A stretch of 64,000 nt of DNA, from contig NZ_PIGG01000065.1 of NCBI RefSeq assembly GCF_002924445.1, forward strand, positions 62,001 through 126,000, given 5' to 3'. The notes under the pieces are model-generated. The model ran no database searches and had not been told where the DNA came from. It saw nothing but the letters and a program-made list of their open reading frames with translations. This document shows positions 44,012-64,000 of this stretch, piece after piece. This DNA is from Minwuia thermotolerans (lineage in GTDB: Bacteria; Pseudomonadota; Alphaproteobacteria; Minwuiales; Minwuiaceae). The translations under genes were made by a program, and so were the position numbers. Every line of letters begins with the position of its first letter. The stretch's first letter is position 1.

Positions 44012-45723
<1,712 letters not shown>

Positions 45724-45750
45724 TGGGGGGTGCCGCATTCAGTACGGGGG

Positions 45751-45849
45751 CGTCCCCGGACTTGATCCGAGGACCCATACCGGAGCGTTTCCGGGGGCAT
45801 GGGAAAGGCTGCAGTTCTCAGGCATGGGCCCCGGGTTTTCGCCCGGGGC
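45751..45849 (+). repeat. REP-like intergenic palindromic element between ureC and ureE
   Basis: The segment contains an imperfect hairpin, CCCCGGA-cttga-TCCGAGG (45753-45772), and a perfect 8-bp one, GCCCCGGG-ttttcg-CCCGGGGC (45828-45849). CCCGGACTTGATCCGAGGACCC and related text is common as a dispersed intergenic repeat in Alphaproteobacteria. It interrupts an otherwise tight urease operon, leaving a 145-base gap. Confidence 0.6.
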
Positions 45850-45868
45850 GCCGTCCCGGAGCGAAGCC

Positions 45869-46360: not shown

Positions 46361-46361
46361 G

Positions 46362-47041: not shown

Positions 47042-47045
<4 letters not shown>
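46362..47045 (+). CDS. ureF: Urease accessory protein UreF
   Basis: All-helical urease chaperone of 227 residues. [31 protein letters not shown] (residues 8-38) is the UreF signature, and the C-terminal [13 protein letters not shown] is also conserved. GGAGGTCATTGAG precedes the ATG at 46362, two bases after the ureE stop. Its end overlaps ureG by four bases. Confidence 0.95.
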
Positions 47046-47686
<641 letters not shown>

Positions 47687-47756
47687 GCGACACGTCGCTT
47701 GATTCGCGTGCACTGGGGCAGATGATGGTCCGGTAGGAACCGTGACGGGGAATACC

Positions 47757-48749: not shown

Positions 48750-49186
48750 TCCCGGACCTTCTCCGCCAGGAAGCGGCGCAGGTCGACGTCGCGTCGCTCG
48801 GTCAGCGAGACATAGGTCAGGCGACAGTTGACCCGCTCCCGGATCATCTGCCCCGGAAAGGGCATGTAGACCAGATCGCCGCCGCCGAAGCCCGGCGAGG
48901 CCGCGCCGACCTGCCAGGCCGATTCCACGGTTACGTCGACCAGCCGGAGCGGTTTGCCGCCGCTCTCGCTGCCGATTTCCAGGGGCACCCCGGCGAGGCG
49001 CAGATAGCTGGCCTTGTCGGAGGCTTCGCGGAAACCCTCGAGGAACTGCCCGGCCAGCATGGCGATCTCGTCGGCCCGGTCCTCACCCTCCATGTGGGAA
49101 TGCAGGTGGGTCGGCGCGGCGTGATCGTGATTGTGGCCGGGCCCGTGATGGTGGTGATGGCCGTGGCCGCGATGATCGTGCGCCAT
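48746..49186 (-). CDS. His-rich protein of unknown family, last gene of the guanidine operon
   Basis: A 146-residue protein I do not recognise as a known family. Residues 1-31 are extremely His-rich (AHDHRGHGHHHHHGPGHNHDHAAPTHLHSH, 14 His), a likely nickel or zinc reservoir like the UreE and HypB tails. Residues 35-146 form a mixed alpha/beta domain (FLEGFREASDKASYLRLAGVPLEIG, RLVDVTVESAWQVGAASP, LTYVSLTERRDVDLRRFLAEK) with no visible catalytic motif. It begins three bases after the stop of the GdmH-like gene, so the two are co-transcribed. A role in metal delivery to the guanidine hydrolase is a good guess but unproven. Confidence 0.8.
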   Translation of the reverse strand: MAHDHRGHGHHHHHGPGHNHDHAAPTHLHSHMEGEDRADEIAMLAGQFLEGFREASDKASYLRLAGVPLEIGSESGGKPLRLVDVTVESAWQVGAASPGFGGGDLVYMPFPGQMIRERVNCRLTYVSLTERRDVDLRRFLAEKVRD

Positions 49187-49189
49187 GGC

Positions 49190-50461: not shown

Positions 50462-51197
50462 CGGGTTTCTCCCAGTCTTTCTCGGTCAGTTTGAAATCGT
50501 AGGTCACGGTGGCGCCGAAGGCGGTCGGATCATGGGGGTCCCAGCGGCGCTTGTCGAAGACCAGCACCCTGTTGGCCAGGGTGAAAGCCTCGGACAGGTC
50601 ATGGCTGACCATGAAGATGGTCATGCCGGTTTCCCGCCAGAGATCGAGCAGGAATTCGTGCATCGACTTGCGGGTGCCCGGGTCCAGCGCGCCGAAGGGC
50701 TCGTCGAGGAGCAGCACCTTCGGCTTCAGCGCCAGCGCCTGGGCGATGGCGAGACGCTGCTGCATGCCGCCGGAGAGCTGGCTGGGCCAGGCGTCGGCCA
50801 TGTGTGCCAGCCCGATACGCTCCAGCACCCGGTCGGCCTCGCGCTCCAGTTCCTGCCGGCGGGGACCGAACAGCCGGCCGAGCAGGCGGCTCCCGCCGAA
50901 CTCCATCGGCAGCAGCAGGTTCCGGCGCACGCTCAGATGCGGGAAGACGGAATAGCGCTGGAAGACGACGCCGCGGTCGGGGCCGGGTTCGCGCGCGGGC
51001 GGCTGTCCGTCGATGCGGATCTCGCCGGCGCTCGGCATCTCCTGGGCCAGCAACATGCGCAGGAAGGTGGATTTGCCGCAGCCCGAGGCGCCGACGATGG
51101 CGCAGAACTGCCCCTCGTCGATGTCCAGGTCGACGTTCTCCAGAATCGGTGTGTGGCCATAGGTCTTGAAGACCCGGCGGACGGAGACCGCGCTCAC
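50412..51197 (-). CDS. NitT/TauT-family ABC transporter ATP-binding protein (guanidine importer)
   Basis: ATPase of 261 residues, SsuB/TauB-like. Walker A GASGCGKSTFLRMLL is near residue 36, the signature LSGGMQQRLAIAQALALKPKVLLLDEPFGALDPGT near residues 145-178, and the switch His is in MVSHDLSEAFTLA. Start is a GTG at 51195-51197 overlapping the permease stop as GTGA. Its C-terminal 50 residues extend past the nucleotide domain (VTYDFKLTEKDWEKPDVPAF). Substrate is inferred from the riboswitch and gdmH. Confidence 0.92.
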   Translation of the reverse strand: MSAVSVRRVFKTYGHTPILENVDLDIDEGQFCAIVGASGCGKSTFLRMLLAQEMPSAGEIRIDGQPPAREPGPDRGVVFQRYSVFPHLSVRRNLLLPMEFGGSRLLGRLFGPRRQELEREADRVLERIGLAHMADAWPSQLSGGMQQRLAIAQALALKPKVLLLDEPFGALDPGTRKSMHEFLLDLWRETGMTIFMVSHDLSEAFTLANRVLVFDKRRWDPHDPTAFGATVTYDFKLTEKDWEKPDVPAFGPPDAPQPAAG

Positions 51198-52015
51198 AGG
51201 CTCTCTCCCTCCGTATGGGCCCAGCCGAAGGCGCGCCGGGAGAACCGGCGCAGCGACCAGTCGATGGCGAAGGCGAGAAACGTGATCCAGCAGACATAGG
51301 GCAGGATCACGTCCATCGCGAGATAGCGGCGGACCAGGAAGATGCGGTAGCCGAGGCCGTCCTGCGCGGCGATCGCCTCGGCCGCGATCAGGAAGAGCCA
51401 GGCCGGCCCCAGCGAGAGCCGGACCGCCTGCACCAGCCGGGGCGCCACCTGGGGCAGGGCGACGCGCAGCAGGATCTGCCACGACGAGCCGCCCAGCGTC
51501 TGCGCCTTGACGAGTTGTTCCGTCGGAATCTCCAGCACGCGCTGACTCAGGTCGCGGATGATGAAGGGGGTGATGCCGACGGCGATCAGCACGACTTTCG
51601 AGACCTCGCCCAGGCCGAAGACGATGAACAGGATCGGCAGCAGCGCCAGCGGCGGTATCAGGGACAGAAAGGCGACGTAGGAGGCCAGGGTGGAGCGGCC
51701 CGCCGGGAACAGACCGATCGCGAGGCCGAAGCCGAGGCCGAGCGAGGCGGCTATGGCGACGCCGACCGCCAGGCGCTGCAGGCTGGCCGCCGTGTCCCGC
51801 CAGAGCAGGACGTCGCCGCTGCGGCGGTCCGGTTCGGTGGCGAGTTCGGCGGCGCGCTCGATCACCTCCGCCGGCGCCGGCAGCAGCTTGTCGTTCGGGT
51901 TCTCCGCCCGGCGGACCTCCGAGCCGACCACATAGGCCAGCAGGGTGAGCGCGAAGGGCAGGGCGGCGAGCAGCACCGCGACCGACCTGACGGGGCGGCG
52001 GTTTATCCAGCGCAC
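51194..52015 (-). CDS. NitT/TauT-family ABC transporter permease (guanidine importer)
   Basis: Membrane permease of 273 residues of the TauC/SsuC type, with about six spans. The first lies at residues 10-32; the EAA-like loop is KAQTLGGSSWQILLRVALPQVAPRLVQAVRLSLGPAWLFLIAAE near residues 170-215. It lies 70 bases downstream of the binding-protein gene and overlaps the ATPase gene by four bases, so the operon order is SBP, permease, ATPase, gdmH, His-rich protein. Confidence 0.92.
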   Translation of the reverse strand: MRWINRRPVRSVAVLLAALPFALTLLAYVVGSEVRRAENPNDKLLPAPAEVIERAAELATEPDRRSGDVLLWRDTAASLQRLAVGVAIAASLGLGFGLAIGLFPAGRSTLASYVAFLSLIPPLALLPILFIVFGLGEVSKVVLIAVGITPFIIRDLSQRVLEIPTEQLVKAQTLGGSSWQILLRVALPQVAPRLVQAVRLSLGPAWLFLIAAEAIAAQDGLGYRIFLVRRYLAMDVILPYVCWITFLAFAIDWSLRRFSRRAFGWAHTEGESL

Positions 52016-52085
52016 TTCGGAACCGCCATGCCGGGGAAGGTCGGGCCGGCCGGCATGGCGGCTCGAAAAGGCTTCGCGCGGTTCG

Positions 52086-53150
52086 TCACAGCTTCCCTTC
52101 GGCGGCCATCACCATGTAGGCCGGATCGAAGCGGAACTTGATGTTGTTGGTATCGCCGAGCGTGGCGCCGCCGGGAAAGGCCATGCCGATGTCGTCGACC
52201 GAGCGCGCGCCCTCGCCCAGGATGCCGTGGTCGAACAGGAAGTTGCGCACGAAATCCATGGTCTGGAGCAGCTTCGGGTCCTCGGTGAAGGCGACCGCGT
52301 CCGCCGGATCGTAGAACATCTTCGTGGTCGCGAGCTGGGCGTCATAGCCGGCGAGGTCGGTGCCGGACGCCTCCGCCATGGCCGTTCGCGCGGCCTTGCC
52401 CGCTTCGGTGTCGGCGGCCATCAGGCTCATGGTCTCGTACCAGGCGCCGGCCAGCGCCTTGCCGAAGTCCGGGTTGTCGGCCAGCGTCTCGGTGTTGACG
52501 ACCATCAGGTCGATGATCTCGCCGGGGATGTCCGCACTGTCGTATATCTTGGAGACGCCCGGCATTTCCATGATGGTGAAGACCAGCGGGTTCCAGGTCA
52601 CCGCGGCGGTGACGCCGGGCGTTGCGAAGGCCGCGACCATGTCGGCGTCAGAGGTGTTGACGATGCCGATGTCCGCTTCCGACATGCCGGCGCTCTCCAG
52701 GCCGCGCGCCAGCAGGTAGTGGGAGACGGAGAGCTCCACCAGGTTGACCTGCTCGCCCTTCAGATCCGCGAAGGCGCGATCGCCCTTCACCAGCACGGCG
52801 TCGTTGCCGTTGGAGAAGTCGCCCACGATCAGCGCCGTCGTATCGACGCCGCCGCCGGCGGGAATGGACAGCGTATCCATGTTGGTCGCGCTGACCCCGT
52901 CGAAGGCGCCGGCGGAGTACTGGTTGATGCTCTCTATATAGTCGTTGATCTGCACGATCTCGACGTCGATGCCGTATCTGGCGGCCCATTTGTCCATGAT
53001 GCCGGAGTCTTCCATGTACCCCCACGGCATCCAGCCGACATAGATCGACCAGGCGACGCGGAAGCTGTCCTTCTTCTCCGCCTGCGCCGGTCCGCCCAGC
53101 CCGATGGCGATGACCGCCGTCGCGGCGATGGTTGCGATGATGCGTTTCAT
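52086..53150 (-). CDS. ABC transporter substrate-binding protein, NitT/TauT type (guanidine binding inferred)
   Basis: Periplasmic binding protein of 354 residues. The Sec signal MKRIIATIAATAVIAIGLGG is cleaved at AQA before EKKDSF. The mature protein opens FRVAWSIYVGWMPWGYMEDSGI and has TNMDTLSIPAGGGVDTTALIVGDFSNG, with the NMT1/SsuA-like two-lobe layout and several aromatic and acidic residues suited to a small cation. The ATG at 53148-53150 follows GAGGAGAACGAACGC. Being the first gene after the guanidine-I riboswitch, it is most likely a guanidine receptor. Confidence 0.9.
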   Translation of the reverse strand: MKRIIATIAATAVIAIGLGGPAQAEKKDSFRVAWSIYVGWMPWGYMEDSGIMDKWAARYGIDVEIVQINDYIESINQYSAGAFDGVSATNMDTLSIPAGGGVDTTALIVGDFSNGNDAVLVKGDRAFADLKGEQVNLVELSVSHYLLARGLESAGMSEADIGIVNTSDADMVAAFATPGVTAAVTWNPLVFTIMEMPGVSKIYDSADIPGEIIDLMVVNTETLADNPDFGKALAGAWYETMSLMAADTEAGKAARTAMAEASGTDLAGYDAQLATTKMFYDPADAVAFTEDPKLLQTMDFVRNFLFDHGILGEGARSVDDIGMAFPGGATLGDTNNIKFRFDPAYMVMAAEGKL

Positions 53151-53239
53151 GCGTTCGTTCTCCTCGCTGCGCCTGTGCCGGCCGGCCTGCGCGGCGAGGA
53201 GAAAGAGGCTCCCGGCCGACCACAAGCCGCCGATTGAAA

Positions 53240-53352
53240 CCTCCCGGGATTTTGGCCCGCCGTGTGTCCCGGCCTGTGCGCGGCCGGGATGGCGGCTCTC
53301 GGACCAGTCGCCCGCGGCGACGCGCGGACCGGAACCCTAGCCGCCCATTGCG
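53240..53352 (-). promoter_or_regulatory. Guanidine-I riboswitch (ykkC class)
   Basis: On the minus strand, 90 bases before the binding-protein ATG, the conserved aptamer blocks appear in order: GGCGGCTAGGGTTCCGG (53331-53347), CTGGTCCGAGAGCCGCC (53292-53308), a 7-bp stem CCCGGCC/GGCCGGG (53268-53288), then ACACGGCGGGCCAAAATCCCGGGAGG (53241-53266, shown here as key blocks ACACGG, AAAAT and CCCGGGAGG). GGCGGCT pairs with AGCCGCC to form P1. These match the published guanidine-I consensus. Such riboswitches turn on expression when guanidine binds. A short reader stretch to the start codon, without an obvious terminator, suggests control of either termination further down or translation. Confidence 0.93.
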
Positions 53353-53643
53353 GTTCCATTGGCAATCGCCGTGCCAGAGCGGTGACGGGGGAGCCCAGGC
53401 CAATTCGGCCCGGAAATTCAGACACTTCCGCGAATGGTCCGCTTCGCCGGCCGCTCAGGCGGATTTCCGGTGCCCAATTTCGCGGCGCACAGACGGTCGT
53501 TGGTCAAATTGCGGGCAGTGCCGCCACATTGCCGCCATGTGCGTCCCGACTCTTGCGCCGGTCGTTACGAATTGGCATCAGAGCCGCGCCGCTTCGGGTT
53601 TGCGGTCGGCGCTCCCCCCTGACGAACGACAATTCGAGGTACG
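53353..53643. other. Intergenic region upstream of the riboswitch and the PAS gene
   Basis: These 291 bases must hold the promoter of the minus-strand guanidine operon and that of the plus-strand PAS-domain gene. No clear promoter, dyad or conserved gene is seen. Confidence 0.5.
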
Positions 53644-54174
53644 ATGAGCGATCCACTGCATCCGGAGACCGGCCAGCCATTGCTCAGCGATGTGAACCGC
53701 GCGCTTCGTGACCACTGGCTGACGCTTCGCGGCGAGGGGCCGGGCCTGCCTTCCTGGGACGCCTTCGATCCGGTGGCCGTGCCCCGGCTGCTGCCCTATC
53801 TGGTGGTTGTCGAGGTCGTCGGCGATCCACCCGTAATCCGCTATCGTCTGGTCGGCACCTTCATCACCGAACTGGCCGGCCGGGACGCCACGGGCCGGAC
53901 GCTGGACGCGGCGCTCTATGGCGACCGGCTGGAGGCGATGATCTGGACCTTCCGGCGATGCGCGGAAAAGGCCGTGCCGCTGGCCACGCTGGGCAGCGTC
54001 CACTTCGCCGAGAAGGAGTGGGTCACGGCGGAGCACATCTTCCTTCCCTTCGCCTGGGGCCTCAACGCCGACAGGGCCGGTATCGTCCTGAGCGGACTCG
54101 ACGTGCTGGCCGGCGACCAACGGCTGGCCGGCCGGTCGCGAGACGTGGAACTGATTCTCGTCTGGCGGAAATAG
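53644..54174 (+). CDS. PAS-domain protein of unknown function (PAS_5 type)
   Basis: A 176-residue protein whose layout matches the alphaproteobacterial PAS_5 group: LRDHWLTLRGEGPGLPSWDAFDPVAVPRLLPYLVVVEV, then RYRLVGTFITELAGRDATGRTLDAALYG, then a strand-rich half ending EHIFLPFAWGLNADRAGIVLSGLDVL. It lacks an output domain, so it is a stand-alone sensory or ligand-binding module. The ligand is unknown. It is divergent from the guanidine operon and convergent with the cupin gene. Confidence 0.8.
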   Translation: MSDPLHPETGQPLLSDVNRALRDHWLTLRGEGPGLPSWDAFDPVAVPRLLPYLVVVEVVGDPPVIRYRLVGTFITELAGRDATGRTLDAALYGDRLEAMIWTFRRCAEKAVPLATLGSVHFAEKEWVTAEHIFLPFAWGLNADRAGIVLSGLDVLAGDQRLAGRSRDVELILVWRK

Positions 54175-54192
54175 ATCCCCGCCCGACAGGCC

Positions 54193-54603
54193 TCAGCCCC
54201 GCGGATCCTCGCAGGGCACGGTGCCCATGTCGGCCGGCACCGAGACCTCCAGGATCTGGAAGTCGTCGGAGGTCCGCAACTCGTTGTGCTTCAGCCCGCC
54301 CGGGATGAAGATCGACTCGCCGGCCTGGACCCGGACGGACTCGCCGGTCTCGAACTCCAGATCGACCCAGCCGCTGGTGCAATAGACGAACTGGGCCTCG
54401 CACTCGTGATAGTGCCAGCCCGTGGACTCGGTCATGCCCTTGTCGGCGGTGGTGAGTTGCGCGCGCATCTTGCCGCCCGTCGCTTCCGTCACGCCCAGAT
54501 CGCGGTAGCTGAAGAAGGCCCGGCGGCCCGGAACCTCGGGCGCGCTCTCCGGCGTGGCGTGCACCGCCTTGCCGAACTTCGGCGCGTTGGACTGATCGTT
54601 CAT
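54193..54603 (-). CDS. Cupin-domain protein
   Basis: Single-domain cupin of 136 residues. The first cupin motif is in GWHYHECEAQFVYCTSGWVDLEFETGESVRVQAGESIFIPGGLKHNEL, with metal-ligand His in HYHE and KHNEL. It is 43 bases downstream of the ArgE-type gene on the same strand, so it may belong to the ectoine cluster; the reaction is unknown. It resembles EctC-like cupins in fold only, since the ectoine synthase core is absent. Confidence 0.85.
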   Translation of the reverse strand: MNDQSNAPKFGKAVHATPESAPEVPGRRAFFSYRDLGVTEATGGKMRAQLTTADKGMTESTGWHYHECEAQFVYCTSGWVDLEFETGESVRVQAGESIFIPGGLKHNELRTSDDFQILEVSVPADMGTVPCEDPRG

Positions 54604-54646
54604 GGCATCCTCCCAGAGCTTTCCCGGAAGTGTAGGGAATTCCCGG

Positions 54647-55807
54647 TCAGGCCGCCAGCCGCACCTTCAGCCCTGCGATCATGTCGAGACACTGGGAGAG
54701 CTGGTCCAGGCTGACGAACTCGTCGGGCTTGTGGGCCTGGTCGATGAAACCGGGGCCGCAGACGACGGTCGGTATACCGAGTTCCTGGAACAGACCGGCC
54801 TCCGTGTTGAAGGAGACGACGTCCGACGAGTTTCCGCCGGTCAGCGCGCGCGCCAGCGCCAGGGCCTCCGAGCCCGGCATGGGCTCCAGACTGCCGACCT
54901 CCCCGATGACGCGATGATGGATCGCCGCCTCCGGGTGGATGGCCTGCATTCGTGGCAGCAGCACATCGTCGGCATAGCGGCGCATGCGTTCACGGACATA
55001 GTCGGCGTCGGCGCGGTTCACCGGCCGGAATTCCCAGTCCACCGTACAATGATTGGGAATGACATTGTGGGCGATGCCGCCATGGATCCGGCCCAGCGAG
55101 ATGGTCGACCAGGGCGGTTCGAAGCGGCTCTCGGCGGGAACCCGCTGTTTCAGGTCTTCGGCGGCGGCGATCAGTTCCGCCGCGTAGCGCACGGCGTACT
55201 CGGCGGCGTTGACGCCGAGTTCGGGCCGGGAGCCGTGACCCTCCAGCCCGTCGAAGCTGGTGCTGTACTCGCAGCAGCCCTTGTGGCCCTCGATCACCCG
55301 CATGCCGGTCGGTTCCCCGATGATGCAGGCCGCGGGACGGCGGCCCGAGTCCTTCAGCGCCTCCAGCATCACCCGCGCGCCCAGGCAGCCGACTTCCTCG
55401 TCATAGGTCAGCGCCAGATGCAGGGGACGCTTGAGGTCCGCTTCGGCGAAGCTTTCCGCCATCGCCAGCGCGCAGGCGATGAATCCCTTCATGTCGCAGG
55501 CGCCGCGGCCATAGATCAGGTCATCCTGGAATCGCGCGGTGAAGGGGTCGCTGGACCAGTCCTGATCCTCGACCGGCACCACGTCGGTATGGCCCGACAG
55601 GACCACGCCCCCGTCGACGTCCGGGCCGATGGTCGCGAACAGGTTCGCCTTGGTGCCCTCGGCGTTGAGCGTCAGGTGGGTGCGGGCGTCGATGCGGTCC
55701 AGGCGCTCATTGGCATAGGCGATCAGTTCCAGATTGCTGTCGGCGGAAACGGTCGCGAAGCCGATCAGGTGGTCCAGGATCTCGCGGGTCTGGTCGAGAA
55801 CGGTCAT
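54647..55807 (-). CDS. ArgE/DapE-type M20 deacetylase in the ectoine cluster
   Basis: Zinc-dependent amidohydrolase of 386 residues, M20 family. Metal ligands are His in SGHTDVVP, Asp in GRGACDMKGF, Glu in TYDEEVGCLGA; GEPTGMRVIEGHKGCCEY and the C-terminal CGPGFIDQAHKPDEFVS complete the ArgE pattern. Its ATG overlaps the doeA stop by four bases, so it is translated with doeA. In described ectoine pathways N-acetyl-diaminobutyrate is deacetylated by DoeB, an AstE-like enzyme; this ArgE-type protein is the likely replacement here. An arginine-biosynthetic role is less likely given the context. Confidence 0.85.
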   Translation of the reverse strand: MTVLDQTREILDHLIGFATVSADSNLELIAYANERLDRIDARTHLTLNAEGTKANLFATIGPDVDGGVVLSGHTDVVPVEDQDWSSDPFTARFQDDLIYGRGACDMKGFIACALAMAESFAEADLKRPLHLALTYDEEVGCLGARVMLEALKDSGRRPAACIIGEPTGMRVIEGHKGCCEYSTSFDGLEGHGSRPELGVNAAEYAVRYAAELIAAAEDLKQRVPAESRFEPPWSTISLGRIHGGIAHNVIPNHCTVDWEFRPVNRADADYVRERMRRYADDVLLPRMQAIHPEAAIHHRVIGEVGSLEPMPGSEALALARALTGGNSSDVVSFNTEAGLFQELGIPTVVCGPGFIDQAHKPDEFVSLDQLSQCLDMIAGLKVRLAA

Positions 55808-56997
55808 GGTTTCACGAACAGCTGGCGGGGATAATTGGCCAGACATTCCGCCGGCCCCTCGCTGCGCACCCTGAGGGGCTCGGTGATCTCCAGGCCCCAT
55901 TCGTCCATCCACAGCGCCGTCATCAGGTGGAAGGTCATGTTGGGCTTCAACTCCGTCTGGTCGTTCGGCCTGATCGAGAAGGTGCGCTCGCCCCAGTCGG
56001 GCGGGTAGGAGAGGCCGATGGGATAGCCGCAGCGGCCCTCGCGCTTGATGCCGCGCTTCTGCAGTACGTCGTAGAAGGCGCGGGCCACGTCGCCGGCGGT
56101 GTTGCCGGGCCGCGCGGCGGAAATGCCGGCCTCGATCCCCTCGATCACTGCCTCCTCGGCGAAGCGCATGTCGGCGGGCGGCTCGCCTAGGAAGATCGTT
56201 CGGCAGAGCGGCGCATGATAGCGCCGGTAACAGCCGGCTATCTCGAAGAATGTCGCCGCGCCCTCCTCGAATGGCCGGTCGTCCCAGGTCAGATGCGCCG
56301 CCGTCGCGTCCCGGCCCGTCGGCATCAGCGGCGCGATGGCCGCATAGTCGCCGCCGAACAGGCCGTCCTCGTCCTCGGAGCCCCACAGGCCGGTATGGTA
56401 GATCGCGGCCGCGATCTCGTTCCGCCGCCGGCCCGGCTCGACGATCTCCAGGATATGGCGATGCATGTTCTCCACGATGCGCGCGGCGCGGCGCATGAAG
56501 CGGATTTCGGTCGGCGACTTGATCACGCGCTGCCAGTTCACCAGCAGGGTGGCGTCGACCAGCGCGCCTTCCAGATTGCGTTCCAGCACCTCATGGGCGC
56601 GGGCGGAATAGTAGTAGTTCTCCTTCTCCACGCCGATGCGGCGGCCGTCCCAGCCGCGCGCCTTGATGGTCTCCGCCAGGTGCTCCATGGCGTGCGAGTC
56701 GCTCGACATCACGTAGTCGTCCGAGTAGCCGACGATGTTCGCCGCATCCATGTAACAGGTGCGCATCGCGCCCATGGCGTCCATGCGTCGGCCCCAGAAC
56801 ACCGGCTCGCCTTCCGGCCCCACGATGACGCCCTGGTGGACGTAGAAGCTCCAGCCGTCATAGCCCGTCAGCCAGGCCATGTTGGAGGGATCGCAGGTGA
56901 ACAGCACGTCCAGTCCGGCATCGTCCATCGCCCGCCTGACCCTTGCGAGCCTGTCGTGATACTCCGCACGATCGAAGGGCAGGGTCACGTCTGGCAT
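55804..56997 (-). CDS. doeA: Ectoine hydrolase DoeA (EutD), M24 creatinase-like
   Basis: Pita-bread-fold enzyme of 397 residues that opens the ectoine ring to acetyl-diaminobutyrate. Diagnostic segments are DPSNMAWLTGYDGWSFYVHQGVIVGPEGEP, LVNWQRVIKSPTEIRFMRRAARIVE and HLTWDDRPFEEGAATFFEIAGCYRRYHAPLCRT. The C-terminal GYPIGLSYPPDWGERTFSIRPNDQTELKPNMTFHLM is nearly that of EutD from Ruegeria. The ATG at 56995-56997 follows GCGAGAGAC. It is divergent from eutB across 93 bases. Confidence 0.93.
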   Translation of the reverse strand: MPDVTLPFDRAEYHDRLARVRRAMDDAGLDVLFTCDPSNMAWLTGYDGWSFYVHQGVIVGPEGEPVFWGRRMDAMGAMRTCYMDAANIVGYSDDYVMSSDSHAMEHLAETIKARGWDGRRIGVEKENYYYSARAHEVLERNLEGALVDATLLVNWQRVIKSPTEIRFMRRAARIVENMHRHILEIVEPGRRRNEIAAAIYHTGLWGSEDEDGLFGGDYAAIAPLMPTGRDATAAHLTWDDRPFEEGAATFFEIAGCYRRYHAPLCRTIFLGEPPADMRFAEEAVIEGIEAGISAARPGNTAGDVARAFYDVLQKRGIKREGRCGYPIGLSYPPDWGERTFSIRPNDQTELKPNMTFHLMTALWMDEWGLEITEPLRVRSEGPAECLANYPRQLFVKP

Positions 56998-57037
56998 GTC
57001 GTCTCTCGCTCGTAAGGGTTGGCGCGGCCAGCGTTGA

Positions 57038-57060
57038 ATTGACGCGCGCGCCGTGTCAAT
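57038..57060. promoter_or_regulatory. Inverted repeat ATTGAC-N11-GTCAAT between doeA and eutB
   Basis: Perfect 6-base arms at 57038-57043 and 57055-57060 in the 93-base gap between divergent catabolic genes. It is placed to control both promoters. No regulator such as EnuR is encoded in the window, so the binder is unknown. Confidence 0.45.
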
Positions 57061-57090
57061 GACGTGTGGACAGCCCAAGGGAAAAACGCG

Positions 57091-58092
57091 GTGTTGAATC
57101 TGAGCGATATCTATGCCGCGCGACAGCGCATGTCGGGTGTCGCCGTGGCGACGCCGCTTGTCGCGTCCGCGCTCTCCGGGCCGGCCGGAGAGGAGATCCT
57201 GCTGAAACTGGAGATCCTGCAGCCGACCGGCGCCTTCAAGCTGCGTGGCGCGGCCAACGCGGTCGCCGCGCACGTGGCCGCCGCGTGCGAGAGCGGCGTG
57301 GTTTCGGTCTCTACGGGCAACCACGGCCGCGCCGTGGCCTACGCCGCGCGCCGCCTCGGCATCCGGGCGGTCATCTGCCTGTCGAATCTGGTGCCTGAGG
57401 GAAAGGCGGCCGCGATCGCCGAACTGGGCGCCGAAGTGCGGCGCATCGGCCGCAGCCAGGACGAGGCCCAGCGCGAGGCGGATCGGCTGATCGCCGACGA
57501 GGGCATGATCGGGATCTCGCCGTTCGACGACCCTCTGGTGGTGGCGGGGCAGGGCACCATCGGGCTGGAGCTGCTGGAAGCGCGGCCGGACCTCGCCTGC
57601 ATCGTGATACCGCTCTCGGGCGGCGGGCTCGCGGCTGGCGTCGCCCTGGCGGCGAAATCGATTCGTCCGGACATCCGGATCGTCGGCGTCAGCATGGACC
57701 GCGGCGCAGCGATGCACGACAGCATCCGCGCCGGGCATCCGGTCGAGGTGGAGGAGGTGCCCTCGCTGGCCGACAGCCTGGGCGGCGGCATCGGCCTGGA
57801 CAACCGGCTCACCTTCGCGCTCTGCCGCGCTCTGATCGACGACATCGTGCTGGTGAGCGAGCAGGAGATCTATGACGGCATGCGTGCGCTCTATGCCCGC
57901 GACCGCCTGGTGGCGGAGGGCGCCTCGGCCGTGGGTCACGCGGCGCTGCTGGCCGGCAAGCTGGATCTCGGGAGTCCGGCGGCGTTCCTGATCACCGGGC
58001 GCAATGTGGACATGGGCCAGTTCTCGGCCGTGATCGCCGGCGAGAGACTGAGCTTCGGGAATGTCCAAGTGGGAGGCGGCGGCCATGCCTGA
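57091..58092 (+). CDS. eutB: Hydroxyectoine utilisation dehydratase EutB
   Basis: PLP-dependent threonine-dehydratase-like enzyme of 333 residues. The PLP Lys is in QPTGAFKLRGAANAV and the phosphate-binding loop in SGGGLAAGVALA. VSVSTGNHGRAVAYAARRLG is also conserved. Members in ectoine clusters help convert 5-hydroxyectoine to ectoine. The GTG at 57091 follows AAGGGAAAAACGCG; a GTG at 57064 would add nine residues. It overlaps eutC by eight bases. As a lone gene it could be called serine/threonine dehydratase. Confidence 0.88.
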   Translation: MLNLSDIYAARQRMSGVAVATPLVASALSGPAGEEILLKLEILQPTGAFKLRGAANAVAAHVAAACESGVVSVSTGNHGRAVAYAARRLGIRAVICLSNLVPEGKAAAIAELGAEVRRIGRSQDEAQREADRLIADEGMIGISPFDDPLVVAGQGTIGLELLEARPDLACIVIPLSGGGLAAGVALAAKSIRPDIRIVGVSMDRGAAMHDSIRAGHPVEVEEVPSLADSLGGGIGLDNRLTFALCRALIDDIVLVSEQEIYDGMRALYARDRLVAEGASAVGHAALLAGKLDLGSPAAFLITGRNVDMGQFSAVIAGERLSFGNVQVGGGGHA

Positions 58093-59074
58093 GATTGCGG
58101 TGCTGACCGAAACCGAGCTGCGCCGGGTCGTGGCCCTCGAACTCGAGCTTGTCGACGTGATCGAGGACGCTTTCCGCGCCCTGGCCGGCGGCGAGGTCGT
58201 GATGCCGCCGATCCTGTCGATGGACCTTCCGATGGTGAACGGCGAAGTCGACGTGAAGACCGCCTGGATTCCCGGCTTTGACGGCTTCGCGATCAAGGTC
58301 TCGCCCGGCTTCTTCGACAATCCGCAGCTTGGCCTGCCCAGCCTCAACGGGCTGATGATCCTGTTCAACGCGAAGACCGGTCTGGTCGACGCACTGCTGC
58401 TCGACAACGGCTATCTGACCGACATCAGGACGGCCGCCGCAGGCGCCGTCGCGGCGCGGCATCTGGCGCCGGAGACGGTGACGACCGCCGGCGTCATCGG
58501 CGCCGGCGTTCAGGCGCGGCTGCAGCTTCAGGCGGCGCATCTCGTGCGGCCCTTCGAGCGGGTGCTTGTCTGGGCGCGGGACCGCGACCGGGCGCTGGCC
58601 TGCGCCGGCGATCTCGAAACGGCTCTCGGTGTCGCGGCGGAAGCGGCGGCGAGTCCCGAAGAAGTGGTGCGCGGAAGCGAACTCGTCGTCACCACCACCC
58701 CTTCCCGCGAGCCTCTGGTGCGGCCCGACTGGCTGCATCCGGGGCTGCACATCACCGCCATGGGCTCCGACCAGGACGGCAAGAACGAGATCGATCCGAC
58801 GGCGATTGCCGCTGCCGATCTCTATGTCGCCGACCGGCTGAGCCAATGTGGAACTGCTGGCGAATGGCAGGCCGTGCTCGCCGCCGGCATGGATGGCGGG
58901 AAGACGCCGCCCGAACTCGGGGCGGTCATCGCCGGCGACGCGACGGGCCGCGAAAGCGGCCGGGACGTCACCATCGTGGATCTCACAGGCACGGGGGCGC
59001 AGGACACGGCCATCGCCACCCATGCGCTCAAGCGCGCGCGTGCGGCCGGTGCGGGATCCGTCATCAACACCTGA
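58085..59074 (+). CDS. eutC: Ectoine utilisation protein EutC (ornithine cyclodeaminase family)
   Basis: NAD-binding protein of 329 residues of the ornithine cyclodeaminase/mu-crystallin family. The substrate-lobe sequence VKTAWIPGFDGFAIKVSPGFFDNPQLGLPSLNGLMILFNAKTG and the Rossmann motif VIGAGVQARLQLQAAHL are clear. AMGSDQDGKNEIDP and the C-terminal GTGAQDTAIATHALKRA are typical. The ATG at 58085 follows GGGAGGCGGCGGCC. With eutB it is part of the hydroxyectoine branch. Confidence 0.9.
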   Translation: MPEIAVLTETELRRVVALELELVDVIEDAFRALAGGEVVMPPILSMDLPMVNGEVDVKTAWIPGFDGFAIKVSPGFFDNPQLGLPSLNGLMILFNAKTGLVDALLLDNGYLTDIRTAAAGAVAARHLAPETVTTAGVIGAGVQARLQLQAAHLVRPFERVLVWARDRDRALACAGDLETALGVAAEAAASPEEVVRGSELVVTTTPSREPLVRPDWLHPGLHITAMGSDQDGKNEIDPTAIAAADLYVADRLSQCGTAGEWQAVLAAGMDGGKTPPELGAVIAGDATGRESGRDVTIVDLTGTGAQDTAIATHALKRARAAGAGSVINT

Positions 59075-59087
59075 GAGCGAGGTAGCC

Positions 59088-60455
59088 ATGCTCAGAAACG
59101 ATCAGCTCGACCAGTGGGATCGCGACAGCTTTTTCCATCCGTCCACCCATCTGGGCCAGCATGCCCGCGGCGAGTCGCCGAACCGCATCGTGACGGGCGG
59201 CAAGGGCGTCTACATCGAGGATCGCGACGGCAAGCGCCTGCTCGACGCCTTTGCCGGGCTCTACTGCGTGAACGTCGGCTACGGCCGAAGCGAGATCACT
59301 GACGCCATCGCCGCCCAGGCGAAGGAACTGGCCTACTACCACGCCTATGTCGGCCACGGCACCGAGGCCTCGATCACGCTGGCCAACATGATCGTGGAAC
59401 GCGCGCCGGCGAACATGCGGTCGGTCTATTTCGGCCTCGGCGGTTCCGACGCCAACGAGACCAACGTCAAGCTGGTCTGGTACTACAACAACGTGCTCGG
59501 CCGGCCGGAGAAGAAGAAGATCATCAGCCGCTGGCGGGGCTATCACGGCTCCGGGCTGATCACCGGCTCCCTGACCGGGCTGGAGTTGTTCCACAAGAAG
59601 TTCGACCTGCCGCTCGACCGGATCCTGCATACCGAGGCGCCGTATTTTCTCCGCCGTCCCGACGCGGGCATGAGCGAGCGGGAATTCTCTGCCTGGTGCG
59701 CCGAGAAGCTGGAGGAGATGATCCAGGCCGAGGGACCGGAGACGGTCGGCGCCTTCATCGGCGAACCGGTGCTCGGCACGGGCGGAATCGTGCCCCCGCC
59801 GGAAGGCTACTGGGAGGCGATCCAGCCGGTGCTGAAGAAGCACGACATCCTGCTGATCGCGGACGAGGTGGTGACCGGGTTCGGCCGCCTCGGCTCCATG
59901 TTCGGCTCCGCGCACTACGGCATCACGCCTGACATCATCACCATCGCCAAGGGGCTGACCTCGGCCTATGCGCCGCTTTCGGGATCGATCATCTCGAAGG
60001 ACGTCTACGATGTACTGATGCGGGGCACCGACGAACTGGGCCCGATCGGTCATGGCTGGACCTATTCGGCGCATCCGATCGGAGCAGCCGCAGGAATCGC
60101 CAACCTGAAGCTTGTGGACGAGCTTGGGCTGGTCGACAACGCGGCCGAGGTCGGCGGCTATTTCCGGAAGGCCCTTGCCGACGCCATGAAGAACCATTCC
60201 AACGTCGCCGAAGTGCGCGGCGAGGGGATGCTGGCCGCGGTCGAACTGATGGACGATCCGGGCGCCCGCAGGTTCTTCGATCCGGCAAAGAAGGTCGGCC
60301 CGTCCGTGGTCGGCGCCATGGCCGAACTCGGCGTCGTCGCCCGCGCCATGCCCCAGGGCGACATCATCGGCTTTGCGCCGCCGCTCTGCCTGACGCGGGC
60401 CGAGGCCGACGAGATCGTGTCCGCAACTGTCGAGGCGATCGGGCGACATCTTTGA
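59088..60455 (+). CDS. Class III aminotransferase of the ectoine cluster (diaminobutyrate transaminase candidate)
   Basis: PLP-dependent omega-aminotransferase of 455 residues. The PLP Lys is in IITIAKGLTSAYAPLSG, the Asp in LLIADEVVTGFGRLGSMFG, and LLDAFAGLYCVNVGYGRSEI and YYHAYVGHGTEAS near the N-terminus are conserved. It resembles the aminotransferase found in ectoine clusters, which turns L-2,4-diaminobutyrate into aspartate semialdehyde; no semialdehyde dehydrogenase (DoeC) is present here. The ATG at 59088 follows GAGCGAGGTAGCC, 14 bases after eutC. Confidence 0.88.
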   Translation: MLRNDQLDQWDRDSFFHPSTHLGQHARGESPNRIVTGGKGVYIEDRDGKRLLDAFAGLYCVNVGYGRSEITDAIAAQAKELAYYHAYVGHGTEASITLANMIVERAPANMRSVYFGLGGSDANETNVKLVWYYNNVLGRPEKKKIISRWRGYHGSGLITGSLTGLELFHKKFDLPLDRILHTEAPYFLRRPDAGMSEREFSAWCAEKLEEMIQAEGPETVGAFIGEPVLGTGGIVPPPEGYWEAIQPVLKKHDILLIADEVVTGFGRLGSMFGSAHYGITPDIITIAKGLTSAYAPLSGSIISKDVYDVLMRGTDELGPIGHGWTYSAHPIGAAAGIANLKLVDELGLVDNAAEVGGYFRKALADAMKNHSNVAEVRGEGMLAAVELMDDPGARRFFDPAKKVGPSVVGAMAELGVVARAMPQGDIIGFAPPLCLTRAEADEIVSATVEAIGRHL

Positions 60456-61210
60456 TCGAAGACCCCGTCTTCTACGCGGTGGCGCTGCCGGTCCTGATGC
60501 TGACCGGCATTTCCAAGGGCGGGTTCGGCGCAGGGATCGGCATCGTCGCGGTGCCGACCCTGTCGCTTGTCGTGCCGCCGCTGCAGGCCGTGGCGATCAT
60601 GCTGCCGATCCTGTGTCTGATGGATATCTTCGGCGTCTGGAGCTACCGCCGCGACTGGAGCCGGAAGCTGATGCTCTATCTGGCGCCCGGCGCGCTGCTC
60701 GGCATCGGCATCGGAACGGCGCTGGCAGGGTGGGTGGACGAGCACATGATCCGCCTGATCATCGGCACGATCGCGGTGCTGTTCTCGCTGAACTACTGGC
60801 TGGGCGGGCGCCGCCGCGACGAGGCGCGGCCGGAGAACCCGGTGCGGGGCGTCTTCTGGTCCGCAGTGTCCGGGTTCACCAGCTTCATCGGCCATGCCGG
60901 CGGTCCGCCGCTGCAGGTCTATCTGCTGCCGCTGAAGCTGAACAAGACGGTCTTCGTCGGCACCACCACCGTGTTCTTCATGGCGGTGAATTACGCCAAG
61001 CTGGTGCCCTATGGCTATCTGGGGCTGCTGACGGAAGAGAACCTGATGACCGCCCTGGTGCTCGCGCCAATCTGCCCGCTGGCGATGCTCTCCGGGGTCT
61101 GGCTCCACCACCGGATCCCCGAGAGGCCCTTCTACCTGATCTGCTACGTCTTCGTCTTCCTGGTCGGGCTCAAGCTGCTCCGGGATGGCGTCACGGGCGT
61201 CTTCGGGTGA
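60452..61210 (+). CDS. Sulfite exporter TauE/SafE family protein
   Basis: Membrane protein of 252 residues with about eight spans. The motif GISKGGFGAGIGIVAVP near residue 20 and GFTSFIGHAGGPPLQVYLLP in the centre define the family. It starts with TTG at 60452, overlapping the aminotransferase stop as TTGA. TauE proteins are linked to export of sulfite or organosulfur anions; it may belong to the ectoine operon by position only. Confidence 0.88.
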   Translation: MIEDPVFYAVALPVLMLTGISKGGFGAGIGIVAVPTLSLVVPPLQAVAIMLPILCLMDIFGVWSYRRDWSRKLMLYLAPGALLGIGIGTALAGWVDEHMIRLIIGTIAVLFSLNYWLGGRRRDEARPENPVRGVFWSAVSGFTSFIGHAGGPPLQVYLLPLKLNKTVFVGTTTVFFMAVNYAKLVPYGYLGLLTEENLMTALVLAPICPLAMLSGVWLHHRIPERPFYLICYVFVFLVGLKLLRDGVTGVFG

Positions 61211-61221
61211 TCTGATCGTCT

Positions 61222-61602
61222 TCAGCCGACAGGCGGGCCCTTCAGTTCCACCGTGTTGCCGTCCGGGTCCTGGATGTAGATCGACGGGCCGTCGCCCTCG
61301 GCGCCGTAGCGGGTGACCGTCTCGCCCTTGTCGACGCCATGCTTCTCAAGGTGCGCCATGATTTCGTCCACGTTCCACGGCTCAACGCGGACGCAGAAGT
61401 GATCCATGTTCGGCGTCTCGGACGGGGCCTTTGCCGGAAACAGGTCGATCAGGCAGGCGCCGGCGCGCATCTGCACCAGACCGATCCGCTCTACCGTGCG
61501 TTCGACCTCGCAGCCCAGAACCTCGCGGTAGAAGGCGATGGCCCGGTCCATGTCGGTGACATTCAGGACAACATGGTCGATTCTTGCGATGCTTATGCTC
61601 AT
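61222..61602 (-). CDS. VOC-family (glyoxalase/bleomycin resistance) protein
   Basis: A 126-residue vicinal-oxygen-chelate protein with the double beta-alpha-beta-beta-beta repeat. First metal ligand His is in RIDHVVLNVTDMDRAIAFY, second in MDHFCVRVEP, and the final Glu in YIQDPDGNTVELKGPPVG. Substrate unknown. Its ATG shares the palindrome CATG with the divergent soxA start. Confidence 0.88.
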   Translation of the reverse strand: MSISIARIDHVVLNVTDMDRAIAFYREVLGCEVERTVERIGLVQMRAGACLIDLFPAKAPSETPNMDHFCVRVEPWNVDEIMAHLEKHGVDKGETVTRYGAEGDGPSIYIQDPDGNTVELKGPPVG

Positions 61603-62368
61603 GAAAGGGCCCCGTCTTTTCCTTCTGGTCGGATGCATCTTGGTCACCGGCGCGCCGATGGCAATGGCGGAGCCGCCCGATCCGCCGAAGTCCGGCCTGG
61701 AATGGGCGACGCCTGCGGTCCGCGAGATGCAGGCCGATCCCTTCGCCAATCCGGGTCTGTTCTGGCTGGAGAAGGGGCGGGCGATCTTCGCGCGGAAGTC
61801 GGGCGCAGCGGACAGGGCCTGCGCCGACTGCCATTCGCCGGCTGATCTGGAAGGCGTTGCCGCGCGCTATCCCGTGGTCCGGGACGGACGGGTAGTGAAT
61901 CTGGAGCGCCAGATCAATGACTGCCGGCAGGCGCGTATGGAGGCAGATCCTCTTCCGCTCGAATCCGAGCCGATGCTGTCGCTCGCGCTTTACCTGCGCA
62001 GCCTGTCGGCGGGCAGGCCGGTCGACGTCGCCGTGGACGGCGCGGCGGAACCCTTCTTCGAGCGGGGGAAGGCCCTCTACCGCGAGCGGCGCGGGCAGAT
62101 GAATCTGGCCTGCTTCCAGTGCCACGACGAGCGCGCCGGACAATGGGTCCGCGGCGAGCAGTTGAGTCAGGGCCAGATCAACGCCTATCCGGCCTATCTG
62201 CTGCGCTGGTCCGGTGTGGGCTCGACGCACCGGCGCTTCCGCTTCTGCGACGACCAGCGCGTCGCCGAGCCGCGGCCGCTCGGTTCCGAGGCCTACCTGG
62301 CGCTGGAGCTCTACCTCGCCTGGCGCGGCAACGGCCTGCCCGTCGAGGCGCCGGCGGTCAGGCGTTAG
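61601..62368 (+). CDS. soxA: SoxA-like diheme c-type cytochrome (sulfur oxidation)
   Basis: Periplasmic cytochrome of 255 residues with a Sec signal (MKGPRLFLLVGCILVTGAPM). Two heme sites are visible, C74ADC77H78 and C171FQC174H175, with C108 in NDCRQARM and the conserved persulfide Cys216 in RFRFCDDQR. This is the SoxA layout, which together with SoxX starts thiosulfate oxidation. No soxX, soxYZ, soxB or soxCD is present, so it is an orphan. ATG at 61601 is preferred for the signal peptide; ATGs at 61589 and 61595 are in frame. None has a good ribosome site. Confidence 0.88.
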   Translation: MKGPRLFLLVGCILVTGAPMAMAEPPDPPKSGLEWATPAVREMQADPFANPGLFWLEKGRAIFARKSGAADRACADCHSPADLEGVAARYPVVRDGRVVNLERQINDCRQARMEADPLPLESEPMLSLALYLRSLSAGRPVDVAVDGAAEPFFERGKALYRERRGQMNLACFQCHDERAGQWVRGEQLSQGQINAYPAYLLRWSGVGSTHRRFRFCDDQRVAEPRPLGSEAYLALELYLAWRGNGLPVEAPAVRR

Positions 62369-62408
62369 CTGACCGGTTTCAAATTGTGTTCGCGCTGCCT
62401 AACTCGTT

Positions 62409-62488
62409 ACCCCCGCCTTGTGCGGGGGTCCGGTGCGGCTTCGCCACAAGTCGATATTCTGCCCGGATGCCCGCACGGGGGCGGGCAT
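62409..62488. repeat. Two REP-like hairpins between convergent soxA and flavin reductase genes
   Basis: ACCCCCGC-cttgt-GCGGGGGT (62409-62429) and ATGCCCGC-acgggg-GCGGGCAT (62467-62488) are perfect 8-bp stems. Text of the type GGATGCCCGCACGGGGGCGGGCATGAC is a common dispersed intergenic element in Alphaproteobacteria. Lying between converging genes, they may also stop transcription on both strands. Confidence 0.6.
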
Positions 62489-62533
62489 GACACCAGAGTA
62501 TTCTGACCTGATTGACCCCGAAGGGGACGTCCC

Positions 62534-63145
62534 CTAGTCCGGCCGGTCCATGGTGAAGACCTTCTCGACCACGGTGTAGTCCATGTAGCCGAGCCGGGCG
62601 ATCGGGCGGTAGGTCGGCATGTCGATCATGCCGTCCTTGATGATCCGCTCGTCGATGTGGATGCCGATCACCTCGCCGACGACCATGTTGTTGGTGATCT
62701 TCGGATTGCTGGAGCGGAGCTGGATGACCTGCACCAGCCGGCATTCCAGGTTGACCGGGCTTTCCTTGACCCGCGGCGCCGAGACCAATTCGCAGTCGGC
62801 GGCAGTGAGCCCCGCTTCCTTGAACTCGTCCACATTGCGCGGCACGTGGGCGGAGCTCCTGTTCATCTGTTCGCGCAGTTCCCAGGTGGCCATGTTGACC
62901 ACGAACTCGCCGGTGTCGCGGGCGTTGGCCGCGGTGTCCTTGGTGTCGCCTTCCGGATGCGGGCCGTTGCAGCCGAAGACAACCGTCGGCGGGTAGTCGG
63001 TGATGGCGTTGAAGTAGCTGAAGGGCGCCAGGTTGAAGCCGCCCTGCCGGTCCCGCGTGGAAATCCAGCCGATCGGCCGGGGCGACACGAGCGCCTTGAA
63101 CGGGTTGTGCTTCAGGCCGTGGTCCTGCTCGGCGCGATAGAACAT
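62534..63145 (-). CDS. Flavin reductase-like (FMN-binding split barrel) protein
   Basis: A 203-residue flavoprotein of the flavoredoxin/flavin reductase group. The start MFYRAEQDHGLKHNPFKALVSPRPIGWISTRDRQGGFNLAPFSYFNAITDYPP is characteristic of the family, including the FMN-phosphate loop. GEVIGIHIDERIIKDG near the end is conserved. The ATG at 63143-63145 follows GGGGAGACATTG. It may supply reduced flavin to the flavin monooxygenase or LLM enzymes elsewhere in the window; no local partner is seen. Confidence 0.88.
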   Translation of the reverse strand: MFYRAEQDHGLKHNPFKALVSPRPIGWISTRDRQGGFNLAPFSYFNAITDYPPTVVFGCNGPHPEGDTKDTAANARDTGEFVVNMATWELREQMNRSSAHVPRNVDEFKEAGLTAADCELVSAPRVKESPVNLECRLVQVIQLRSSNPKITNNMVVGEVIGIHIDERIIKDGMIDMPTYRPIARLGYMDYTVVEKVFTMDRPD

Positions 63146-63380
63146 CAATGTCTCCCCCTGATCTTCCCTGCGGCGCTCAAAGCTAGTGCGACCGAAGCGG
63201 GCTATCAACGCCGAAGGCGGCGAGGGGGGGGCATCGAATCCCGGGACACGCCGCCATTGCGCCATTGCGTGGCGGCGACCTGCCGGCATCTGGGCAAAGT
63301 GCCGGAAAGTCCTGGCCTGACTTGAAACCGCGATCACCATCGGCTCATACTTCTGCAATCATTCGGTGCAGGGGAATGGC

Positions 63381-63548
63381 ATGAGCGGGAACGCGGCGTC
63401 GGGCGGCGAGGAAAAGCTCTGGCTGGTCTACGCGGTGGTGTCCTTCGGCGGCCGCAATGAGGTGTTGGCGACGCTCAAGCGCGACCGGAAGGTCAAATCC
63501 CTCCAGCCCGTTCCCGCCGCCCAGGACCCGGGAGTGGTGGAATGGTAA
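63381..63548 (+). CDS. Small hypothetical protein coupled to the AT-rich membrane protein
   Basis: A 55-residue reading frame (MSGNAASGGEEKLWLVYAVV...) ending GVVEW. The ATG at 63381 follows AGGGGAATGGC. GC content is normal for the genome, unlike the gene it overlaps by seven bases. No family is recognised. A mixed beta/alpha pattern (LWLVYAVVSFGGRNEVLATLKRDRKV) is visible. Co-translation with the next gene suggests that the two act together. Confidence 0.5.
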   Translation: MSGNAASGGEEKLWLVYAVVSFGGRNEVLATLKRDRKVKSLQPVPAAQDPGVVEW

Positions 63549-64000
63549 GAACTCATGCAAAGTATCGCTGGCTGACCTTGGCAATATTCTCTACGATAAG
63601 CGCCCTAGTTTTTCTGATATCCACTACGGTTATTTGCCAAGAGAGAGGTGATGAAAATGTATATAAAAAAATCTGTATAAATCAGAAAGAATTCTTTGAA
63701 CATCTCGCAAAAATAGCAAAAAATGATCATAATTTCTATATTTGTGCGAGATCGGAGACAAAAATACTTGTAAACGCTTTTGATTTTGGGAAACATAAAC
63801 TGTATTTAAACTGGGGAAAATGGGATAATATTAGTGAAGAGGGTGGGATATCTTCATCTGAATATGAATCAGATTTCGCGGATATACAAATTATTCAATA
63901 TTGCAAATATCACTGTCCGGATATATTAAGTAATATATCAGAACATAGTCTCTTGATTCAAATGAAAAAGTGGTCTATATTTAATAATAGGAAAATTCAG
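63542..64000 (+). CDS. AT-rich gene for a membrane-anchored protein of unknown function, 3'-truncated by window
   Basis: An open frame from ATG 63542 to the window end (153 codons, no stop). Residues 10-32 (WLTLAIFSTISALVFLISTTVIC) form a signal anchor; the rest is polar and lysine/asparagine-rich (e.g. YKKICINQKEFFEHLAKIAKND, KWDNISEEGGISSSE). Several Cys occur (positions 31, 45, 66 and two in YCKYHC), possibly for disulfides. From about 63590 base composition falls sharply, and codon choice (AAA, ATA, AAT, TTT) differs from all other genes here, indicating recent transfer. No family is recognised. Confidence 0.7.
   Translation, partial: MVRTHAKYRWLTLAIFSTISALVFLISTTVICQERGDENVYKKICINQKEFFEHLAKIAKNDHNFYICARSETKILVNAFDFGKHKLYLNWGKWDNISEEGGISSSEYESDFADIQIIQYCKYHCPDILSNISEHSLLIQMKKWSIFNNRKIQ

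What the first reader, a model, noticed from the sequence alone, without database searches (positions are those of the whole stretch)
63381..64000. GC-normal small gene fused by overlap to an AT-rich, probably foreign, membrane protein gene
Composition drops abruptly near 63590 within the second gene. It encodes a signal-anchored Cys-containing protein of no recognised family, overlapping a 55-residue gene by seven bases. This may mark the left edge of a horizontally acquired island, e.g. with an effector or defence function.
Basis: partly seen in the sequence, partly recalled or inferred. Interest (0 to 1): 0.5.

Follow-up and report, generated by a model that had tools for sequence, protein, structure and literature searches.

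The report
Orphan immunity-like gene behind broken toxin-activator
A short AT-rich gene sits on the broken-off tail of a toxin-activating enzyme gene; comparison with related bacteria suggests that it is a leftover immunity gene from an RTX-type toxin used against rival bacteria, not the edge of a large foreign island.

Summary
In detail: GC falls from about 0.67 to about 0.33 inside the second gene, which overlaps a 55-codon ORF by 7 bases. On the extended contig the AT-rich gene (X) is a complete 199-codon ORF and GC is normal again about 600 bases later. The foreign piece is about 1.07 kb between two ordinary genes, and a congener has the empty site. It is not an island edge.

The 55-codon ORF is the decayed tail of an HlyC-family toxin-activating acyltransferase gene; it holds the likely ribosome-binding site and start codon of X. 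The same genome has a second hlyC tail with a different AT-rich membrane ORF, two congeners have frameshifted hlyC with a third X, and another alphaproteobacterium has a tandem pair.

In intact loci elsewhere the order is often hlyC, a short, mostly AT-rich, sequence-unrelated X, then a giant RTX protein. Some giants begin with a separate domain (once a cell-wall hydrolase) followed by HINT; three giants lacking that domain also lack X.

Best reading: X is an orphan immunity gene of a type I-secreted polymorphic toxin (inferred, about 0.6). The hlyC remnant and the small insertion are near certain.

The parts
63211..64000 (.). Inserted piece of about 1.07 kb; it continues past the window to about window-equivalent 64281
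   Evidence: Last shared left anchor ends at 63210, first shared right anchor begins at window-equivalent 64282; 1071 bases between them; the site is empty in G006
63381..63548 (+). hlyC': decayed 3' end of a toxin-activating acyltransferase gene (55-codon ORF)
   Evidence: HMM from 11 other HlyCs: best of 1181 open segments of the window, E 1.6e-4, next 3.8, best reversed decoy 1.1; BLASTP 41% over 49 aa to the G263 HlyC, E 6e-12 for this single comparison; Pfam HlyC 12.5 bits, below the cut-off of 25
63531..63534 (+). GGAG, likely ribosome-binding site of X, inside the last hlyC codons
   Evidence: GGAGTGGTGGAATGG at 63531, identical in G001 and G003; a GGAG in the last hlyC codons in 7 of the 10 junctions printed
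63542..64000 (+). X: AT-rich (GC 0.35) 199-codon gene for a protein with an N-terminal hydrophobic anchor; proposed orphan immunity protein; ends at window-equivalent 64141
   Evidence: Complete ORF on L003 1543-2142; frame openness and GC; no family in Pfam or NCBIfam

Best explanation
The pair is an orphan module, a dead hlyC tail plus X, left from or moved out of a type I-secreted RTX polymorphic-toxin locus. In intact loci of other alphaproteobacteria the order is hlyC, then X, then a giant RTX protein. X most likely makes the immunity protein for an effector domain at the N-terminus of the giant; in several giants that domain is joined to the RTX body through a HINT (self-cleaving) domain. 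Here the acyltransferase is dead, but its last codons still supply the likely ribosome-binding site and start codon of X. X would be an inner-membrane-anchored, mostly periplasmic protein that protects the cell from a relative's toxin. Shown: hlyC remnant, small insertion, complete X frame, repeated hlyC'-X modules with different X, hlyC-X-giant order elsewhere. Inferred: that X is an immunity protein, that it is made, where it sits, and which toxin it meets.
For: hlyC remnant. Empty site in G006. Second module in the own genome, G001 and G003, tandem pair in G271. All 11 hlyC copies I had DNA for whose product ends in W are followed by a short lower-GC ORF, 10 directly and 1 after a second hlyC (class defined after seeing the data, and G001/G003 are one orthologous case). 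X proteins unrelated to each other except G001-G003. GGAG plus start of X embedded in the hlyC tail. N-terminal regions of giants L097 and L076 AT-rich, followed by HINT. L099: secreted AT-rich ORF 20 bases before an AT-rich cell-wall-hydrolase domain (PF07486, above cut-off) plus HINT. 3 of 3 giants that start with the end of HINT directly after hlyC lack X. ABC transporter and HlyD before hlyC in L096 and L097.
Against: X has no detectable homologue, so no toxin is known for it: best other match among 143 genomes E 0.01, none in plasmids, phages or viral contigs. The structure model is unusable (pLDDT 42). Two other X-slot proteins have weak DUF2927 similarity and one weak TPR matches, so the slot may sometimes hold an accessory gene. 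In 1 of 16 hand-picked loci (L107) X is not lower in GC than hlyC, and in Methylovirgula (L165) X is only 0.53 against 0.57. hlyC copies with other tails often have no such X. The L111 X is not AT-rich and its hlyC is on the other strand. The G001 X is cut short by a stop relative to G003. Most N-terminal effector assignments are below Pfam cut-offs.
Confidence: 0.6

Rival explanations
1. Debris only: a piece of an RTX toxin locus landed here by illegitimate recombination and is decaying; X has no present function.
For: hlyC is dead here and broken in G001/G003; the G001 X has a stop that G003 lacks; no cognate toxin identified; C47 X ends at a junction with a duplicated gene fragment.
Against: The window X frame is fully open although AT-rich (0 of 20,000 shuffles); G001-G003 X differs by 7 synonymous and 8 non-synonymous changes over 66 and 240 sites (Fisher p 0.024), small numbers; the translation start context is kept.
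Confidence: 0.22
2. X is an accessory gene of the RTX/HlyC machinery (chaperone, secretion or acylation helper) and not an immunity gene.
For: Its place between hlyC and the giant; weak DUF2927 and TPR matches of some slot proteins.
Against: X proteins are unrelated between loci, unlike what a conserved helper would show; X is missing where the N-terminal effector part is missing (3 of 3) although hlyC and the RTX body remain.
Confidence: 0.13
3. Left edge of a horizontally acquired island.
For: Abrupt GC change.
Against: GC normal again about 600 bases later; insertion of about 1.07 kb with an empty site in G006; ordinary genes follow; no tRNA nearby.
Confidence: 0.02

Closest known systems
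Orphan immunity genes left by displaced effectors, V. cholerae T6SS arrays (PMC5361080; abstract and passages read)
   Same: An immunity-type gene kept after loss of its weapon, with a partial weapon gene still attached in some cases
   Different: There the remnant is of the effector and the genes stay in the T6SS cluster; here the remnant is of the toxin-activating acyltransferase, the system is type I/RTX, the module lies alone, and immunity is untested
Class IV CDI with CdiC, an HlyC-family acyltransferase (PMC8510554; abstract and passages read)
   Same: An RTX-type acyltransferase serving an antibacterial polymorphic toxin with an immunity gene
   Different: CDI uses CdiB/CdiA with a C-terminal toxin and cdiI; the loci here have ABC transporter/HlyD, RTX giants and N-terminal effector-like domains with X upstream
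Polymorphic toxin systems with HINT processing (PMC3482391; passages read)
   Same: Modular effector domains, HINT domains, variable neighbouring immunity genes
   Different: That paper's abstract (seen in the listing) describes C-terminal toxin domains; the main text held gave no match for HlyC, acyltransferase or T1SS (the first 300,000 of 357,715 characters). Here the variable domain is N-terminal
Cdz bacteriocin of Caulobacter crescentus (PMC5380434; listing and start of abstract only)
   Same: A bacteriocin of an alphaproteobacterium that kills on contact; type I secretion and the immunity gene are recalled
   Different: Two glycine-zipper proteins; HlyC and RTX giants are not part of it as far as I recall

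Membership tests
HlyC / RTX toxin-activating acyltransferase (PF02794) | Pfam match above the curated cut-off | tested here: not met
   12.5 bits against 25 for the 55-aa ORF; it is a fragment, with homology shown
HlyC / RTX toxin-activating acyltransferase (PF02794) | Conserved His and Asp (catalytic H37 and D107 in CdiC, PMC8510554 passages; that they correspond to H64 and D133 of alignment A2 is inferred from the motifs) | tested here: not met
   His region absent; the Asp invariant in 8 of 8 HlyCs is Tyr here
Orphan immunity gene of a polymorphic toxin | Remnant of the weapon locus attached | tested here: met
   hlyC tail directly upstream, overlapping by 7 bases
Orphan immunity gene of a polymorphic toxin | Same slot holds unrelated, variable genes in relatives | tested here: met
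   16 X compared, only G001-G003 alike at E 0.05
Orphan immunity gene of a polymorphic toxin | A homologue sits beside an intact toxin elsewhere | tested here: not met
   No homologue of this X found
Orphan immunity gene of a polymorphic toxin | Neutralises a toxin | not testable with these tools
   Needs a bench test
Genomic island | Long foreign stretch with integrase, tRNA or att site | tested here: not met
   About 1.07 kb only; no tRNA; no repeat of 14 bases or more bounding the insert; no integrase among 8 neighbours scanned
Class IV CDI | cdiB and cdiA next to the acyltransferase gene | tested here: not met
   None among the 8 neighbours scanned

The most novel reading that the evidence does not exclude
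There is an undescribed, widespread class of type I-secreted polymorphic toxins in Alphaproteobacteria with a mirror-image layout: hlyC, upstream immunity gene X, then a giant with an N-terminal variable effector (for example a cell-wall hydrolase), HINT and an RTX body. X and the effector form an exchangeable, often AT-rich cassette bounded by the hlyC tail and HINT, and orphan hlyC-tail+X modules such as this one spread as immunity cassettes whose translation start is built into the hlyC tail.
Probability: 0.5. Interest if true: 0.7.

Novelty: new variant of a known kind. Interest (0 to 1): 0.52.

Why it matters
RTX proteins with HlyC are best known as toxins against animal cells (general knowledge). 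If the slot behind hlyC is an immunity slot, many giant RTX proteins of environmental bacteria become testable antibacterial weapons, and hlyC tails become a marker for finding their immunity genes, including orphans that belong to no recognisable family. For this locus it replaces an unexplained foreign gene with a specific, testable role.

Tried and rejected
Island edge: rejected with the extended contig. Integron-like or folded cassette end: single-strand DNA folds of the two GC-rich parts were no better than shuffles (z 0.34 and 0.96). Phage or anti-phage gene: no PADLOC match, only PHROG matches at E 0.043 or worse, no relative in phage records or viral contigs. Solved structures: only matches at E 0.77 and 1.5. 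Structure: AlphaFold2 on the single sequence gave pLDDT 42, so no fold search was made. Named-genome scan: a broad HlyC alignment had no usable stretch; a two-sequence alignment gave 8 loci, most of another HlyC tail type. Pfam HlyC on the own genome found nothing at E 10, so both own remnants are below that search. The right-hand end of the insert resembles a stretch elsewhere in the genome only weakly (76% over 56 bases, E 0.002) and was not pursued. I did not count how often hlyC copies with other tails lack X, and the W-tail class was noticed in the same data in which it was counted.

Full report
What was checked. The window is contig C65:62001-126000 of a 4.9 Mb genome. G263 is labelled same class, and its 14,495-base contig reappears as Kiloniella litopenaei, so the organism is an alphaproteobacterium (class of Kiloniella recalled); it was not named further. 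The two ORFs, the 7-base overlap and the composition drop are as described. Extending the contig shows that the second gene, X, is complete at 199 codons and that GC returns to normal about 600 bases after the drop.

Small insertion, not an island. In congener G006 the flavin-reductase gene and the GNAT gene are adjacent. In the window genome 1071 bases lie between the last shared left anchor (ending at window 63210) and the first shared right anchor (window-equivalent 64282). In the other five congeners only the reductase side of the site matches. No repeat of 14 bases or more bounds the insert. There is no tRNA in window 44000-64000 or L003. The eight neighbours scanned are ordinary: aminotransferase, TauE, SoxA/TsdA-type cytochrome, flavin reductase, GNAT, IalB, P450, helicase.

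The small gene is a hlyC tail. Pfam HlyC gives only 12.5 bits (E 0.14, cut-off 25), but an HMM built from 11 HlyCs of other genomes picks 63321-63545 as the best of 1181 open segments of the window (E 1.6e-4; next 3.8; best reversed decoy 1.1). BLASTP to the G263 HlyC gives 41% over 49 residues (E 6e-12 for this single comparison). The Asp invariant in 8 of 8 aligned HlyCs is Tyr here, four residues are missing in frame, and the part with the conserved His is absent, so the enzyme must be dead.

Same arrangement, different X. Own contig C47 has a hlyC tail followed by an unrelated 87-codon ORF of GC 0.32 with two hydrophobic segments, beside a 222-base, 93% duplication of the 3' end of a gene with an EAL match (E 3.2e-5, below the curated cut-off). 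G001 and G003 carry hlyC broken by the same frameshift (Pfam E 2.7e-12 and 1.5e-10 for the two G001 pieces; both genomes), followed by a third X. G271 carries two truncated hlyC tails in tandem, each with its own X, between a histidine-kinase-like gene and transport genes (names are my reading of the translations). A profile search of 9 genomes of the family found hlyC in 3: G000 (2 places), G001 and G003; the window and G001/G003 sequences were in that profile, C47 was not (E 0.0013).

The junction. In the window, G001 and G003 the hlyC codons for G-V-V-E-W read GGAGTGGTGGAATGG: a Shine-Dalgarno-like GGAG, seven bases, then the ATG of X. A GGAG in the last hlyC codons precedes X in both G271 copies, G134a and Roseibium as well, so in 7 of the 10 junctions printed; C47, G263 and G134b differ. 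This would explain why orphans keep the hlyC tail (inference).

Intact loci. PF02794 was found in 29 of 385 genomes of the class (E up to 1e-4) and 23 of 397 of the phylum (E up to 1e-8). Of the hlyC copies I had DNA for, 11 distinct ones end in W (one of them, G001, is orthologous to another, G003), and 11 of 11 are followed by a short lower-GC ORF: 10 directly, 1 (G382) after a second, 3'-truncated hlyC. In G271 the contrast is small. In a hand-picked set of 16 loci X has lower GC than hlyC in 15 (mean difference over all 16 of 0.21), and the X proteins are unrelated at E 0.05 except G001-G003. hlyC copies with other tails often lack this arrangement. A giant follows X in L076, L096, L097, L098, L103 and L107 of that set. 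In the first 1400 residues Pfam finds RTX repeats in L096, L097, L098, L103 and (without X) L102, but not in L107 or L165. The Roseibium giant is annotated as calcium-binding. ABC transporter and HlyD precede hlyC in L096 and L097.

Why immunity. In L097 the first 600 nt of the giant have GC 0.39-0.40, then 0.56; in L076 0.43-0.46, then 0.55. In L076 Pfam PT-HINT lies at residues 183-322 (E 3.8e-12), and L097 has a similar stretch where GC rises (tblastn E 6e-12). HINT-like sequence occurs in 6 of 28 distinct loci searched. In L099 a 235-aa AT-rich ORF (0.40, signal-like N-terminus by eye) lies 20 bases before an ORF whose AT-rich N-terminus is a cell-wall hydrolase (PF07486, 33.4 bits, cut-off 27), followed by HINT-like sequence. 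Weaker, below cut-off: lipase-like in L165 (E 0.0034), hydrolase-like in L111 (0.018), and in L076 a HELLH motif by eye with Peptidase_M10 at only 0.19; L097 has no match. In 3 of 3 loci where the giant after hlyC starts with the end of HINT (L099, L100, L102) X is missing too. In L111 a lipoprotein-like X (GC 0.51, by eye) abuts a giant with HINT, but hlyC is on the other strand. A slot that varies, goes with the effector part and mostly encodes membrane, secreted or lipoprotein products (some, such as L076 and L110, look soluble) is what immunity to envelope-acting effectors would look like.

Against. X itself has no homologue (best other match E 0.01 in 143 genomes; none) and no usable structure. 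Two slot proteins have weak DUF2927 similarity and one weak TPR matches. The Methylovirgula X is not AT-rich (0.53 against hlyC 0.57). The G001 X is cut short relative to G003; between the two X there are 7 synonymous and 8 non-synonymous differences over 66 and 240 sites (Fisher p 0.024), while the N-terminal hlyC piece has 1 and 8 and the C-terminal piece 7 and 7. The genome has 193 RTX-repeat matches but no HlyC found with Pfam, so no cognate toxin was identified.

Literature. Ten searches listed no paper whose title or abstract start describes an immunity gene between hlyC and a type I-secreted RTX toxin. The library lacks most subscription journals; only passages of PMC8510554, PMC3482391, PMC4612132 and PMC5361080 were read, so an earlier description cannot be excluded.

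Noticed in passing
window 4851-5300: The only other GC dip below 0.5 in the window; it lies between two genes (solute-binding-protein-like and GntR-like regulator, names by eye).
   Followed up: yes
L079 about 5900-7600 (G000 contig C47): Second hlyC tail plus AT-rich ORF in the same genome, beside a 222-base, 93% duplication of the 3' end of a gene with an EAL match, as if the module arrived with a partial copy of its neighbour.
   Followed up: partly
L095 10382-11652 (G271): Tandem pair of truncated hlyC tails, each followed by its own membrane-protein ORF; no toxin gene seen in the translations listed around it.
   Followed up: partly
L097 10740-12147 (G382): Two hlyC genes in tandem, the second cut at its 3' end where a GC 0.27-0.33 ORF begins.
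   Followed up: partly
L099 (G009:C35), reverse strand 5100-9400: AT-rich cassette of a secreted ORF and a cell-wall-hydrolase-HINT ORF upstream of hlyC, followed by a giant that starts with the end of HINT.
   Followed up: partly
G000 contigs C49/C56, C66/C75, C15/C37: Matches at identical coordinates in pairs of contigs suggest duplicated contigs in this assembly.
   Followed up: no
G000, whole genome: 193 RTX-repeat matches in many large frames but no HlyC match at E 10 with Pfam.
   Followed up: no
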